From: Owenia fusiformis
Taxonomy: Eukaryota > Annelida > Polychaeta > Sabellida > Oweniidae
Direction: 5' to 3'
Length of the DNA: 64,000 bases
Assembly: GCA_903813345.2 (NCBI GenBank)
Contig: CAIIXF020000012.1
Location: forward strand, 14,688,020-14,752,019
In this document: in pieces, positions 2,842-57,579 of the stretch
Position numbering within the stretch: position 1 is the stretch's first letter
Layout of the letters: each line of letters begins with the position of its first letter
Notes under the pieces: model-generated
Told to the model about the DNA's origin: nothing
What the model saw: the letters and a program-made list of their open reading frames with translations, nothing else
The model's database searches: none
Program-made: the position numbers and the translations under genes

Positions 2842-3369
2842 CACTGTTCCACAACTACATGTAGTTACTTTGACGGAACGTCAATGTAACAAAATGGATG
2901 AATTTCCTGGTAAAGAGTTTTTTTATTTTCTCGATTTAAACCTACTTATAAGTCAAGTTGCAGATAACTTGGCACAAAGCTCGAAAATGTAATTTAGTTT
3001 TAATAAGTTTCTTCGATTTGGATTTTGTTTTGTAAATGAAGTTGCAATTCATATATTTAGCCCCTCGCTTTTGTTACATTGACGAAAGTCCGTTATATTA
3101 CCAATTAATGTATGTTACTTTGACGACTTACGTCATTGTAACAAAAGCGATGTTCTAAATGAATGCATTACAGCTTTATTTAAAAATCAAATTCCAAACC
3201 GAGAGCATTTCTAAAAGCTAGACTATATTGTGTAACTTTGTGCCAAATGATAATCCGCAACATGACTTATAAGTAAATTCAAAGCGAGAAAACGAAAAAT
3301 TCGTATCCAGGAAGTTCATCCATTTTGTTACATTGACGTTCCGTCAAAGTAACTAGTTGTGGAACAGTG
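2842..3369. mobile_element. 528-bp fold-back MITE
   Basis: The ends are inverted copies: CACTGTTCCACAACTA at the left, TAGTTGTGGAACAGTG at the right. The inverted match continues inward through GTTACTTTGACGGAACGTCA and AATGGATGAA. Inside, the words GTTACTTTGACG and CGTCAATGTAAC recur as smaller palindromes (near 2870, 3075, 3115 and 3325), so the element is built of nested hairpins. There is no coding capacity. Non-autonomous DNA transposon; superfamily not assignable. Confidence 0.8.
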
Positions 3370-8062: not shown

Positions 8063-9054
8063 AAATGTAGAAATATCACCCAAATTAAATTTTGACTATT
8101 CAAAAGAAGACATTCAAATCTACACTCCCCTTCATAAGTTTGGCAACCTTTTTTCCCCATTGAACTACGTGTAATAGCCTCTTTACATTTGAATTTTTAT
8201 TAACTTAACCTGCGATGAAAATACTTATACTATTGATGGAAACGTAATTTGACTTTAATTCCAATACCTCCAAACTTTCTCATTTATTCCTCAATTACAA
8301 TAGGCCGAAAATTGATGATAAATTTGATGATTTTTTGAAAATCGACATTCCCATGTTAACCAATGGGAAATGGTAGGTTTGCCGCAAGTCATATGACAGA
8401 ATATCCATCCATCCGAGTCCTTGCAAAAATACGAGTTAAGCAGGCAATTGAATTTGCTAACTTAATTTAACAAAAAATTGATATGTTTCTTCAGGTTCAA
8501 CAAAGTTATAGGGCTTTAAAGTCAAAATTGTTTTTCAAAAAAACTCTCCCATTGAAATAACACGGGAGGCGAAAATTTATTTTCAAAAATGACTTTGAAG
8601 CGCTGTAACTTTAATATTCATCAAATAAACTAAACACGTAGTGTTCAAAAAAGTTAGACAATTCAATTTTCTATATAAAAATATTTTTTGCTGAATCTTT
8701 TACTGAAAAGATATCCTGATTTCTGATTTGCCCCGAACCCTTCATTTACCATTGGTTAACATCGGAATGACGATTTTCAAAAATTCATCAAATTTATCAT
8801 CAATTTTCGACCTATTGTAATTGAGGAAAAACATTGAGAAAATTTGAAGGTATTGGAATTAAAGTCAAATTACGTTTCCATCAATAGTATAAGTATTTTC
8901 ATCGCAGGTTAAGTTAATAAAAACTCAAATGTAAAGAGGCTTTAACACGTAGTTCAATGGGGGAAAAAGGTTGCCAAACTTATGAAGGGGAGTGTAGATT
9001 TGAATGTCTTCTTTTGAATAGTCAAAATTTAATTTGGGTGATATTTCTACATTT
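8063..9054. mobile_element. Tc1-like MITE inside a larger inverted repeat
   Basis: The core 8123-8994 (872 bp) has ends CACTCCCCTTCATAAGTTTG and the inverted CAAACTTATGAAGGGGAGTG, each next to a TA dinucleotide, as expected for Tc1/mariner elements. The arms match over about 250 bp (for example AAACGTAATTTGACTTTAAT and its complement near 8880). The inverted match does not stop at the TA but runs on for another 58 bp on both sides (AAATGTAGAAATATCACCCA outwards). No transposase frame. A diverged relative is at 29424-29631. Confidence 0.82.
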
Positions 9055-23478: not shown

Positions 23479-23943
23479 CAGGGTGGTTCGAAAAAGTGAA
23501 CCGCTGCAACAGGCTATATTTTCCTTATTACCGGCAAGAATCCTTTCATATTTTCACCTGTTGAACGGTTAAAACTGCTTCAGATAGTTAATGAAAGTGT
23601 AAAATGTGTTTCTGCTCAAATAGTGTCCCATTTGTAATATCGTAAGGTTTTAAACGTGTATCTCGCACTGAAAGCTGTTTTAAGATCATCCAGTTTGTTT
23701 CAACAATTTCCGTGAAGCCCACTGGTAAAATTTTGCACTCTTGCACAATATCTAATTTTCAGGCATGTTTGTTCAGTTGTTTAAGAGTTTGTAATTTCTT
23801 TAAAACTCAATACGGAGAATAAATTATGGAATCAACAAAAATGTATACCTTTATCTACAATGTGTGATAATATGAGCCAATTCATGCATGTATTAAGGAA
23901 AATATAGCCTGTTGCAGCGCTTCATTTTTTGGGGACCACCCTG
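23479..23943. mobile_element. 465-bp mariner-type MITE
   Basis: Left CAGGGTGGTTCGAAAAAGTG, then CGCTGCAACAGGCTATATTT; right AAATATAGCCTGTTGCAGCG, then GGGACCACCCTG. TA on both sides. No coding frame. A broken relative is at 4943. Confidence 0.82.
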
Positions 23944-34517: not shown

Positions 34518-35890
34518 TCCAAAATTTGCATGTTGATTTTTGAGTGTTAATTTTAGGGCTTTTTAGGAAACTACGCCTGAAAGGAATGATCATTAGACAA
34601 TGCATTGAGTTTTAGGCTTTAATTCTTTTTATACATTGCAAAATATTTCCTACAAAATCATCTACAGGGTGACCGGAAAAAAAGGAGACCATTGAAGTAA
34701 TCAATTTCTCCTAAACTAGACAAGTGCCATCAATGAAATTTTGCATACACTGGAACAGTTATATGGAAATTTGTTACTGAAGGTTTCAATACAAGCATTC
34801 AACTGGTTCAGGAGCTATGATCATTTACATAACATGCTCCAAATAGGCACAATTGAGACTAACGCAGAGTTGGATTCATATGGCAAACTACCCTTACATG
34901 TTCTGCCCTCTATGGCATTATTATGGCATTACATATAGCAGTGATTGCCTTCTTTAGGTCAACAATAGTCTGAGGATTGTTTTGGTATAGATTGTCTTTC
35001 AAATATCCATACAAAAAGAAATCAGCAGGATTCAAGTCTAGGCTGTAATGGCAATGAAGGGTTATCTGACATGTGGTTCATCATCCTGTTGCCAAAGTGC
35101 TGATTTACCCAATCTTAAGAGTCACTTTGGGTATTGGGCATAGTGCCATGTTACTAAAACCACTATATGGCACAATTAAATCCCATATGGAAACCAAGGG
35201 CTGCCCAAAACCTCCTTAGGATGATACTGTAACTGAGTGGGACCACTGAGTCAGAAGCCATAGGTCAGATAAGCTTCGTCTCCATACACCTCAAATTTGA
35301 ATCCACCTGATTTCTTTTTGTGGGGCAATTTGAAAGACAATGTGTACCAAAACAATCCTGAGACAATTGCTGACCTAAAGGTGGCAATAAATGCTAAATG
35401 TAATGCCATAACAAGGTCGGAATATGTAAGGGTATTTGCCAAATGTATCCAGCTCTGCGTTGGTCTCAATTGCGCCTATTTGGAGCATGTTATGTAAATG
35501 ATCATAGCTCCTGAACCAGTTGACTGCTTGTATTGACACTTTCAGGAACAAATTTCCATAGAACTGTCCTGATGTATGCAAAATTTCATTGATGTCACTA
35601 GTCTATTTTAGGAGATATTGCCTATTTCAATGGTCTCCTTTTTTTCCGGTCACCCTGTAAAAGATACGAAATTACTAAATGAACATATTTTCAATTACAC
35701 TTTTTGCAAGGGTCAAGTTGGCAAAGTATCAATTTCAATATGTAGAGTCCAGACAGCACCCTGACAACTAGTGACCTTGAGTTCGTTATTGGTCATATAA
35801 CGGAATGCAATTGCGTGAAATAGCGTGTTCTCATTGGCTATGTGTGAATTATCTTTTGAATTCTTAAAATATGTTTAGATTTCAAATTGA
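34518..35890. repeat. Dispersed repeat copy 1, interrupted by a mariner fold-back
   Basis: The two outer parts (34518-34664 and 35658-35890) match, in order, the uninterrupted copy at 41385-41770. Shared words: TTTAGGAAACTACGCCTGA(A/G), ACAATGCATTGAGT, AAATCATCTA, GAAATCACTAAA-type, TTTTTTGCAAGGGTCAAGTT, GGCAAAGTATC. Confidence 0.8.
34665..35657. mobile_element. 993-bp palindromic mariner relic with two transposase 3' ends
   Basis: Ends CAGGGTGACCGGAAAAAAAG and CTTTTTTTCCGGTCACCCTG, with TA on both sides. Inverted arms of about 350 bp each. The right arm reads on the plus strand, about 35275-35497, a mariner-type transposase C-terminus: NLNPPDFFLWGNLKDNVYQN, then PETIADLKVAI, ending CVGLNCAYLEHVM. 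The left arm reads on the minus strand (about 35040-34880) the same segment: SLDLNPADFFLYGYLKDNLY, QNNPQTIVDLKKAI. So the transposase 3' end is present twice, pointing outward, and the 5' part with helix-turn-helix and first aspartates is gone. Both frames are decayed. Confidence 0.85.
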
Positions 35891-41260: not shown

Positions 41261-41384
41261 AGTGTTTATTGAAGGGAATGGTAGATGGTAAATATTACAT
41301 TGTGAGTACAGATTCATGATTTATTTAGTCTTCGTTTGGATTTGCTAGACTCAATGCATTGTTTGCTGAATCATACCATGAAGG

Positions 41385-41770
41385 TGTTGTTTCCAAACCT
41401 TTGCATTACCGCACAGGTGGGAATGCAAAGTTTAGGAAACAACGCCTGAGTGGAATGAAGCAGCTACAATGCATTGAGTCTTGGGCTTAAATTCTTTTCA
41501 CATATGATATTGCAATTTTTTCTATAAATCATCTAAAAGGAACGAAATCACTAAAAGAACACATTTTAAATGAAATTTTTTGCAAGGGTCAAGTTGGCAA
41601 GTCATCAAATCCAATGTGAAAAATCCATTCGCTAAAACTAATGACCTTGCATGTGTTATTGATATTTCACACGCAGTTCATTATGTGAATACTCTGTTCG
41701 GATTGGCTGGAATCTGACACACCTTGCCTAGCTATGCGCGAATTTCATTTTAAAACATTATTCAATTTCC
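41385..41770. repeat. Dispersed repeat copy 2 (uninterrupted)
   Basis: Same order of words as 34518-34664 plus 35658-35890, but AAATCATCTAAAAGGAACGA (41526-41545) is continuous where copy 1 carries the 993-bp mariner relic. This is an empty site. Confidence 0.8.
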
Positions 41771-57034: not shown

Positions 57035-57579
57035 ATAATCACTGGTGATCCACTCGATTACGCTGGTTACCAAAACGAACTGTTTCGGTAACAAAGTGTC
57101 GGAACGTCGAAGGTACGATTTTTCTTTTTTCCTTATTTCACGCGTTGTAGGCAGAATCCCCGCGACGTTTTTTCTGACAAGGTATATCAGTATCATATGT
57201 TTTAGAAAATGTACATGTTTGCGAAAAAATAGCTCAGAAGACAACAGAATCGTCGATTTACTTCTTCACTTAAGTTACATAAACGGTTTGGGTTAAAAGT
57301 GCAGATCTTAACTGTTTTTCGAAAAACCGTTTATGTAACTTAAGTGAGGAAGTAAATCGACGATTCTGTTGCCTTTCGAACTATTTGTTCGCAAATATGT
57401 ACAATTTCTTAAACATATGATACTGATACATGTTTGTGTTAAAAAATGTCTTGGAAATTCTGCCTACAACGTGTAAAATAAGGAAACGAGAAAAATCGTA
57501 CCTTCGATGTTCCGACATTTTGTTACCAAAACGGTTCGTTTTGGTAACCAGCGTAATCGAGTGGATCACCAGTGATAAT
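57035..57579. mobile_element. 545-bp near-perfect palindrome (fold-back element)
   Basis: Left end ATAATCACTGGTGATCCACT, right end AGTGGATCACCAGTGATAAT. The two arms pair almost throughout (about 240-250 bp each), down to CATAAACGGTTT against AAACCGTTTATG near the centre, with a loop of about 30 bases. Minus and plus frames of 60-83 codons on both arms mirror each other and are not genes. Confidence 0.92.

What the first reader, a model, noticed from the sequence alone, without database searches (positions are those of the whole stretch)
34665..35657. Mariner relic made of two outward-facing transposase 3' ends, with an empty site in the same window
The element has intact mariner-like ends (CAGGGTGACC, TA flanks), yet both arms code for the same C-terminal part of a transposase (DFFLWGNLKD on plus, DFFLYGYLKD on minus) pointing outward, and no 5' part exists. 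An uninterrupted paralogue of the target (AAATCATCTAAAAGGAACGA at 41526) shows that the insertion duplicated only TA, so the palindromic form itself was probably mobile. Such end-to-end 3' fold-backs would pair two right-hand TIRs and could be a way to form MITEs with long arms.
Basis: partly seen in the sequence, partly recalled or inferred. Interest (0 to 1): 0.8.

Follow-up and report, generated by a model that had tools for sequence, protein, structure and literature searches.

The report
Jumping element with two tail ends
A 993-base jumping element made of two copies of the tail end of a transposon, joined back to back, has spread recently to about 185 places in this genome, while only three complete copies were found of the transposon that probably moves it, which makes it a natural test of whether two matching ends jump better than the usual unlike pair.

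Summary
Window 34665-35657 is a complete, TA-flanked, 993-bp element whose two arms are both the 3' end of a Tc1/mariner-type transposon. It is no relic: its central breakpoint occurs at 185 places in this genome (at most 3 mismatches; reversed control 0), and 20 sampled copies differ from their majority by 0.31% on average. The likely helper exists: three near-identical, TA-flanked 1394-bp elements with an open transposase frame and a DD41D triad. Its 5' and 3' ends share only the outer 26 bp; both palindrome ends are of the 3' type. 3'-type ends outnumber 5'-type ends 320 to 4. The centre resembles the deletion junction of old relics, so the palindrome most likely arose by a strand switch in an already internally deleted copy. 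The arms group together (97.8/98) yet differ by 13.4%, while few older copies turned up (4 of 185 hits with 2-3 mismatches). Engineered mariners with two copies of the better end are hyperactive; this may be a natural counterpart, but that advantage is inferred, not shown.

The parts
34665..35657 (.). Complete non-autonomous element, 993 bp, two inverted 3' ends
34663..34664 (.). Left TA of the target-site duplication
35658..35659 (.). Right TA of the target-site duplication
34665..34696 (+). Left terminal repeat: outer 26 bp shared with both ends of the helper, next 6 bp (ATTGAA) as at its 3' end only
   Evidence: identical to the helper's 3' end for 32 bp
35626..35657 (-). Right terminal repeat, also of the 3' type; identity with the helper's 3' end runs on to 43 bp
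34665..35233 (-). Left arm: 3' end of the transposon, helper 3' bases 1-567, transposase from about residue 232 to the stop, frame broken
34910..35077 (-). Remnant transposase C-terminal frame in the left arm (DFFLYGYLKD), 55 codons
35234..35253 (-). About 20 bp resembling the start of the 5' half in old deletion derivatives, next to the strand-switch point; limits approximate
   Evidence: BLAST alignments of relics L015, L018, L019 run through element base 587-589; sequences compared by eye
35256..35657 (+). Right arm: 3' end of the transposon, helper 3' bases 1 to about 412, transposase from about residue 283 to the stop
35273..35497 (+). Open transposase C-terminal frame in the right arm (DFFLWGNLKD), 74 codons
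41364..41708 (+). Uninterrupted paralogue of the target repeat; single TA at 41534-41535

Best explanation
The element is a young, high-copy, non-autonomous member of a DD41D Tc1/mariner lineage whose two ends are both 3' ends. Shown: the structure, the shared breakpoint at about 185 places, TA duplication, near-identity of sampled copies, and an apparently intact autonomous relative with the same 26-bp terminal repeat. Inferred: the transposase of that relative moves the element in trans. Inferred with less certainty: it was born when an already internally deleted copy (helper base 567 joined to about 984-994) was copied from its 3' end inwards to about base 588, and the copying strand switched at a few bases of shared sequence to the opposite strand at about helper base 412-418, running back out over the same 3' end. 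This replaced the 5' end by a second 3' end. Inferred weakly: pairing two 3' ends, presumably the better end, helped it to spread.
For: Both arms match the helper's 3' end; the helper's 5' end shares only 26 bp with them. Palindrome-specific 30-mer: 185 places with at most 3 mismatches, 181 with at most 1, reversed control 0. Of 20 sampled copies all have the centre; 19 have TA on both sides, and in one the left 21 bases do not align. Mean substitution distance of these 20 to the majority 0.31%, range 0.20-0.52%. Three helper copies, differing pairwise at 5, 2 and 3 of 1394 positions, TA-flanked with three different 10-base flanks; each has a 379-codon stop-to-stop frame and matches PF16087; in L006 the frame from ATG is 366 codons and PF16087 scores 7.9e-14. 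BLAST alignments of relics L015, L018 and L019 with the element run from the left arm across the centre to base 587-589. The split that joins the arms against helper and relics has support 97.8/98. Arm-to-arm differences are even over codon positions (10/81, 13/81, 15/80; p 0.53), while each arm differs from the helper more at third positions (p 0.033 and 0.001), as expected if the arms drifted apart after coding ended.
Against: The arms differ from the helper by 21-25% in BLAST (18.9% and 22.7% substitutions, gaps left out), so it is not the direct parent; identical terminal repeats and equal youth are the only links to trans-mobilisation. If the arms were born identical, the palindrome is much older than its burst (13.4% against 0.31%), yet only 4 of 185 hits carry 2-3 mismatches, so few old copies are seen. 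The left arm may have changed faster (30 against 18 polarised changes, p 0.11; 13 against 2 outside the coding columns, p 0.007), which would fit two different parents. Other nodes of the tree are weak (UFBoot 33-64). The outer 26 bp of the helper's two ends are identical, so no strong and weak end is visible in the terminal repeat proper.
Confidence: 0.8

Rival explanations
1. Hybrid of two neighbours: two related, already diverged elements lay in opposite orientation; the transposase paired their outer 3' ends, moved everything between, and an internal deletion removed both 5' ends. The arms would then have differed from birth. (Rival on the origin only; it shares the rest of the best explanation.)
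For: Explains 13.4% arm difference beside 0.31% copy difference and the scarcity of old copies without a long silent history. Possible faster change of the left arm, 13 against 2 outside the coding columns.
Against: The arms are each other's closest relatives among the 8 sequences of the tree (97.8/98). Codon positions differ evenly between arms (p 0.53), whereas two parents that went on coding should show a third-position excess; two dead parents would not.
Confidence: 0.3
2. Horizontal arrival: palindrome and helper evolved in another species and entered this genome together not long ago; the arms diverged elsewhere. (Compatible with either mode of birth.)
For: Both are young here (0.31%; 0.14-0.36%). 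Apart from the three helpers and the C467 derivative, matches to the helper's 5' half have 67-85% identity, one 33-base piece at 97% aside. Explains the scarcity of old palindromes.
Against: Relics in the same genome share the 567 deletion breakpoint with the left arm, which fits local descent. No other animal genome could be searched, and old palindromes could be searched only by 30-mer.
Confidence: 0.25
3. The high copy number has nothing to do with two 3' ends: any short element without a coding frame might have spread by chance or because it escaped silencing.
For: Homogeneous many-copy deletion derivatives with both natural ends are well known (MITEs; PMC5490172, passages). The outer 26 bp are the same at both helper ends.
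Against: A young 5'-3' deletion derivative of similar size, 838 bp on C467, TA-flanked, is the only one found with the 5'-type end (4 hits: three helpers and this one). This is a comparison with a single element.
Confidence: 0.45
4. Assembly or chimera artefact.
For: Inverted repeats can be misassembled (general knowledge).
Against: 185 places share the centre; the flanks of the 20 sampled copies differ from each other, 19 with TA on both sides.
Confidence: 0.01

Closest known systems
Engineered Mos1 with two right inverted repeats (PMC4505599; abstract and passages read)
   Same: Tc1/mariner element with two copies of one end; there two IRR beat the natural pair 26-fold in vitro, two IRL were 50-fold below the natural pair, and Sleeping Beauty is cited as similar
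   Different: Engineered, end differences lie inside the 28-bp repeat; here natural, differences begin after 26 identical bp, helper is DD41D, and no activity was measured. Mboumar-9 in the same paper prefers its left end, and only two-fold
Galileo with extended TIRs in Drosophila willistoni (PMC4168063; passages read)
   Same: Long inverted arms that have taken in the final piece of the transposase frame, more than 500 bp in one copy
   Different: P superfamily, TIRs of about 760 bp in the nearly complete copy, varied structures; the authors call the trait unique among described Galileo transposons; here a Tc1/mariner element with one structure at about 185 places
MITEs of mariner and rosa lineages in aphids (PMC5490172; abstract and passages read)
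   Same: Non-autonomous derivatives of full-length copies, homogeneous in size
   Different: Those are reported as internal deletions with two intact extremities; here one natural end is replaced by a second copy of the other
Made1 from Hsmar1 (PMC1784062; passages read)
   Same: Mariner-derived palindrome
   Different: 80 bp, two 37-bp repeats around 6 bp; here about 400-bp arms with transposase remnants that reveal which end was doubled
LTIR/Lsra elements of aphids, DD40-41D (PMC5490172; passages read)
   Same: DD41D lineage with TIRs of about 460 bp
   Different: Full-length elements over 2.3 kb that carry a transposase; here the arms are the 3' end of the gene and no complete transposase is left

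Membership tests
IS630-Tc1-mariner superfamily | TA target-site duplication | tested here: met
   19 of 20 sampled copies TA on both sides, 3 of 3 helper copies, single TA in 7 of 9 uninterrupted paralogues of the target; copy L004 has TG on one side
IS630-Tc1-mariner superfamily | Terminal inverted repeats | tested here: met
   32 bp identical between the element's ends, 26 bp between the helper's
IS630-Tc1-mariner superfamily | DDE/D transposase with HTH (in the helper) | tested here: met
   PF16087 above cut-off; PF13358 and PF13565 below their cut-offs; D165, D260, D302 assigned by motif, motif recalled
DD34D mariner proper | 34 residues between second and third D | tested here: not met
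   41 residues
rosa / VS (DD41D) | 41 residues between second and third D | tested here: met
   family names from passages of PMC5490172 (rosa) and PMC8472432 (VS)
rosa / VS (DD41D) | Groups with rosa or VS transposases in a tree | not tested
   no reference transposases were at hand
MITE | Non-autonomous, many homogeneous copies | tested here: met
   185 junction hits; 0.31% mean distance in 20 copies
MITE | Two intact natural extremities of the parent (PMC5490172 passage) | tested here: not met
   two 3' ends
MITE | Short, about 80-500 bp (PMC2642840 passage) | tested here: not met
   993 bp
Foldback/Galileo | Long inverted arms | tested here: met
   about 400 bp, 84%
Foldback/Galileo | P-superfamily transposase | tested here: not met
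   the likely helper is of Tc1/mariner type

The most novel reading that the evidence does not exclude
A natural transposon that has swapped its weaker 5' end for a second copy of its stronger 3' end and thereby out-multiplied its own helper by about 60 to 1: the natural counterpart of the hyperactive two-right-end mariner made in the laboratory, and a general route by which long-armed palindromic non-autonomous elements arise (internal deletion, strand switch, burst).
Probability: 0.35. Interest if true: 0.75.

Novelty: new variant of a known kind. Interest (0 to 1): 0.52.

Why it matters
How palindromic non-autonomous elements arise, and why some out-multiply their autonomous partners, are open questions; PMC2642840 says that its model does not explain why most MITEs, including mariner-derived ones, are palindromic throughout (passage). 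Here the arms are long enough to tell which end was doubled, an apparently intact helper is present, and a 5'-3' derivative of similar size sits in the same genome. The effect of end pairing on spread can therefore be tested with three short constructs.

Tried and rejected
Pfam on the arm fragments alone gave nothing above a cut-off. A Pfam DDE_3 search of the genome (150 of 221 candidates scored, 40 matches) did not list the helper; DUF4817 found it. I looked for a full-length parent closer to the arms among the 36 places that match the helper's 5' half: besides the three helpers, 28 of the other 33 were fetched and five weak ones were not. Of these, seven relics had enough 3' sequence to be compared with the arms, and none was closer to either arm than the arms are to each other; two of the seven (L048, L052) were left out of the tree as too short or too divergent. 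I looked for palindromes of two 5' ends: the 5'-type end has 4 hits, the three helpers and the C467 derivative, and no fetched stretch showed the 5' half in both orientations. Old palindromes could not be searched well: only the best 40 candidates of a DNA search are scored and the young copies fill them, and the 30-mer allows 3 mismatches. Literature: searches showed, in the listings that I saw (20 of 79, 12 of 201, 1 of 1, 4 of 4, 10 of 13 papers) and in passages of six papers, no natural Tc1/mariner family with two 3' ends; searches returned no paper. The library lacks most subscription journals, so this is no proof of absence. A guess at the species by chromosome number led nowhere. Hairpin RNA and silencing effects of the arms were considered and not tested.

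Full report
What is there. Window 34665-35657 is a 993-bp element with TA on both sides. Its ends are 32 bp identical in inverted orientation. The arms pair over 412 and 400 bases (84% by BLAST; 13.4% substitutions over 402 aligned bases, gaps left out). Within the element CAGGGTG or its complement occurs only at the two ends, so there is no internal terminal repeat of this kind.

It is a young family. A DNA search gave 338 first-look candidates, of which 40 were scored; these 40 cover the query from base 1-3 to 992-993 at 100% rounded identity. A 30-mer across element bases 551-580 has 183 hits with at most 3 mismatches. Because that 30-mer turned out to lie on a deletion junction that old relics share in diverged form, I repeated the count with a 30-mer across the strand switch itself: 185 hits with at most 3 mismatches and 181 with at most 1; the reversed control had 0 each time. 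I picked 20 copies by hand from the 100 places that one search lists (all 100 with an exact 30-mer, so slightly biased to young copies); none of them is among the 40. All 20 have the centre; 19 have TA on both sides, and in L029 the left 21 bases do not align. Their substitution distance to the majority is 0.31% on average, 0.20-0.52%. The majority was taken over 27 copies: the window, L002-L004, these 20, L063, L065 and L067. L001 (the window itself), L064 (only one end found) and L066 (carries an insertion) were left out. Of the four copies that came with flanks, L004 has TG instead of TA on its right side.

The helper. A genome search with Pfam DUF4817, the N-terminal domain that a 3' fragment cannot contain, gave 64 matches (97 of 97 candidates scored); the best three are near-identical full-length elements, L005-L007. 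Each is 1394 bp, TA-flanked with different 10-base flanks, and pairwise they differ at 5, 2 and 3 of 1394 positions. Each has a 379-codon frame from stop to stop; from its ATG the frame of L006 has 366 codons and matches PF16087 at 7.9e-14, with PF13358 and PF13565 below their cut-offs. By motif (recalled) the catalytic residues are D165, D260 and D302, with 41 residues between the last two; DD41D is the signature of rosa elements in PMC5490172 and of the VS family in PMC8472432 (passages). I did not place it in a tree of transposases.

Two 3' ends. The helper's 5' and 3' ends share 26 bp and then differ (5': CAAAAG, 3': ATTGAA). Both ends of the palindrome continue as the 3' end does; the left arm is identical to it for 32 bp and the right arm for 43 bp, although in BLAST the arms differ from it by 25% and 21% overall. 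At 75-79% identity such runs are unlikely by chance under a simple independent-site model (about 1e-4 and 4e-5), which points to selection on the binding site or to conversion. Genome-wide, with the same tolerance of 3 mismatches, the 3'-type 32-mer has 320 hits (the helpers' own 3' ends among them) and the 5'-type 32-mer has 4: three helpers and one deletion derivative. That derivative, on C467, is an 838-bp TA-flanked element with one 5' and one 3' end. So a conventional derivative of similar size has one copy and the 3'-3' form about 185. This is suggestive, but rests on one comparison.

How it was born. The left arm matches helper bases 1-567. There three older relics of the family also break: L015, L018 and L019 go from about 567 to 993-994 in BLAST, or about 984 by eye. 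BLAST alignments of these relics with the palindrome run from the left arm across that junction to element base 587-589, so the 20 bp after the left arm resemble the start of their 5' half (palindrome TGAGTGGGACCACTGAGTC; L019 TGAGTTACGCCACTGAGTA, 14 of 19 by my count). Then the sequence turns into the inverted right arm, which reaches helper base 412 or slightly beyond. At the turn a few bases (GTCA or GAGTCA) can be read either way; this was judged by eye and is uncertain because the parental sequence is not preserved. The order of events that fits is: internal deletion; strand switch near base 588 of the derivative back to about base 412-418 on the other strand; loss of the 5' end; burst. 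The young C467 derivative breaks at the same TGTAAC (567 to 1118), so this spot may be fragile.

Arms. In a tree of 8 sequences (best model HKY+F+I) the split that joins the arms has support 97.8/98; branch lengths are 0.103 left and 0.056 right; the other nodes are weak (UFBoot 33-64). Polarised against helper and relics, 30 changes fall on the left arm and 18 on the right (p 0.11), 6 being ambiguous. In columns outside the helper's frame, or gapped in the helper, it is 13 against 2 (p 0.007); in coding columns 17 against 16. Differences between the arms are even over codon positions (p 0.53), whereas each arm differs from the helper with an excess at third positions (right arm p 0.033, left arm p 0.001). 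This favours drift of both arms after coding ended, that is, one parent; but the uneven non-coding count and the scarcity of old copies keep a two-parent hybrid and a horizontal arrival open.

Empty site. With both TAs kept, the joined flanks align with the 41.5-kb paralogue over about 350 bases; with one TA they align without a gap at the site. The flanking DNA is an abundant repeat: 1719 first-look candidates, 40 scored, 39 of them running across the site and one being the window's own right flank. Of the 8 fetched and the 41.5-kb copy, 7 of 9 have a single TA at the site; L071 and L072 differ there.

Mechanism. A transposase of this superfamily binds both ends and cuts and pastes into TA (established knowledge). 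That the helper acts on the palindrome is inferred from identical terminal 26-32 bp and equal youth. For Mos1, passages of PMC4505599 report 26-fold higher in vitro transposition with two right ends than with the natural pair, and 50-fold lower with two left ends; Mboumar-9 works best with two left ends, two-fold above its natural pair. By analogy two 3' ends may be advantageous here. Against the analogy, the end differences in Mos1 lie inside the repeat, whereas here they begin after 26 bp, and which end is stronger varies between elements.

Known or new. The nearest precedents that I saw are Galileo copies that took the end of the transposase frame into both TIRs (PMC4168063, passages) and engineered two-right-end Mos1. 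In the listings and passages seen (two searches returned nothing) there was no natural Tc1/mariner family of this kind, in a library that lacks most subscription journals. I file it as a new variant of a known kind.

Noticed in passing
window 8063-9054: A 992-bp nearly complete palindrome (81% self-complementary by BLAST); the element studied has no BLAST match there.
   Followed up: partly
window 57035-57579: A 545-bp palindrome, 86% self-complementary, with stop-free stretches of 65-85 codons on both strands.
   Followed up: partly
window 2842-3369: A 528-bp palindrome, 77% self-complementary, preceded by TTTA and beginning CACTGTTCC.
   Followed up: partly
window 23479-23943: TA-flanked element with CAGGGTGG ends and 67-bp subterminal inverted repeats (84%), probably another Tc1/mariner-type non-autonomous element.
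   Followed up: no
G000 C467:7813-8650 (L027, L077): Young 838-bp 5'-3' deletion derivative of the helper; its breakpoint lies at the same TGTAAC as the much older deletion in the relics, joined at 6 bp of shared sequence.
   Followed up: partly
window 34561-34664 and 35660-35790; 41364-41708: The target DNA is a copy of an abundant dispersed repeat (1719 first-look candidates, 40 scored); its copy at 41.5 kb contains an inverted stretch, 41347-41481.
   Followed up: partly
L066 (G000 C5:22698100-22699800): One palindrome copy carries an insertion of about 500 bp within its right arm, with 6 bp of the element repeated on both sides of it.
   Followed up: no
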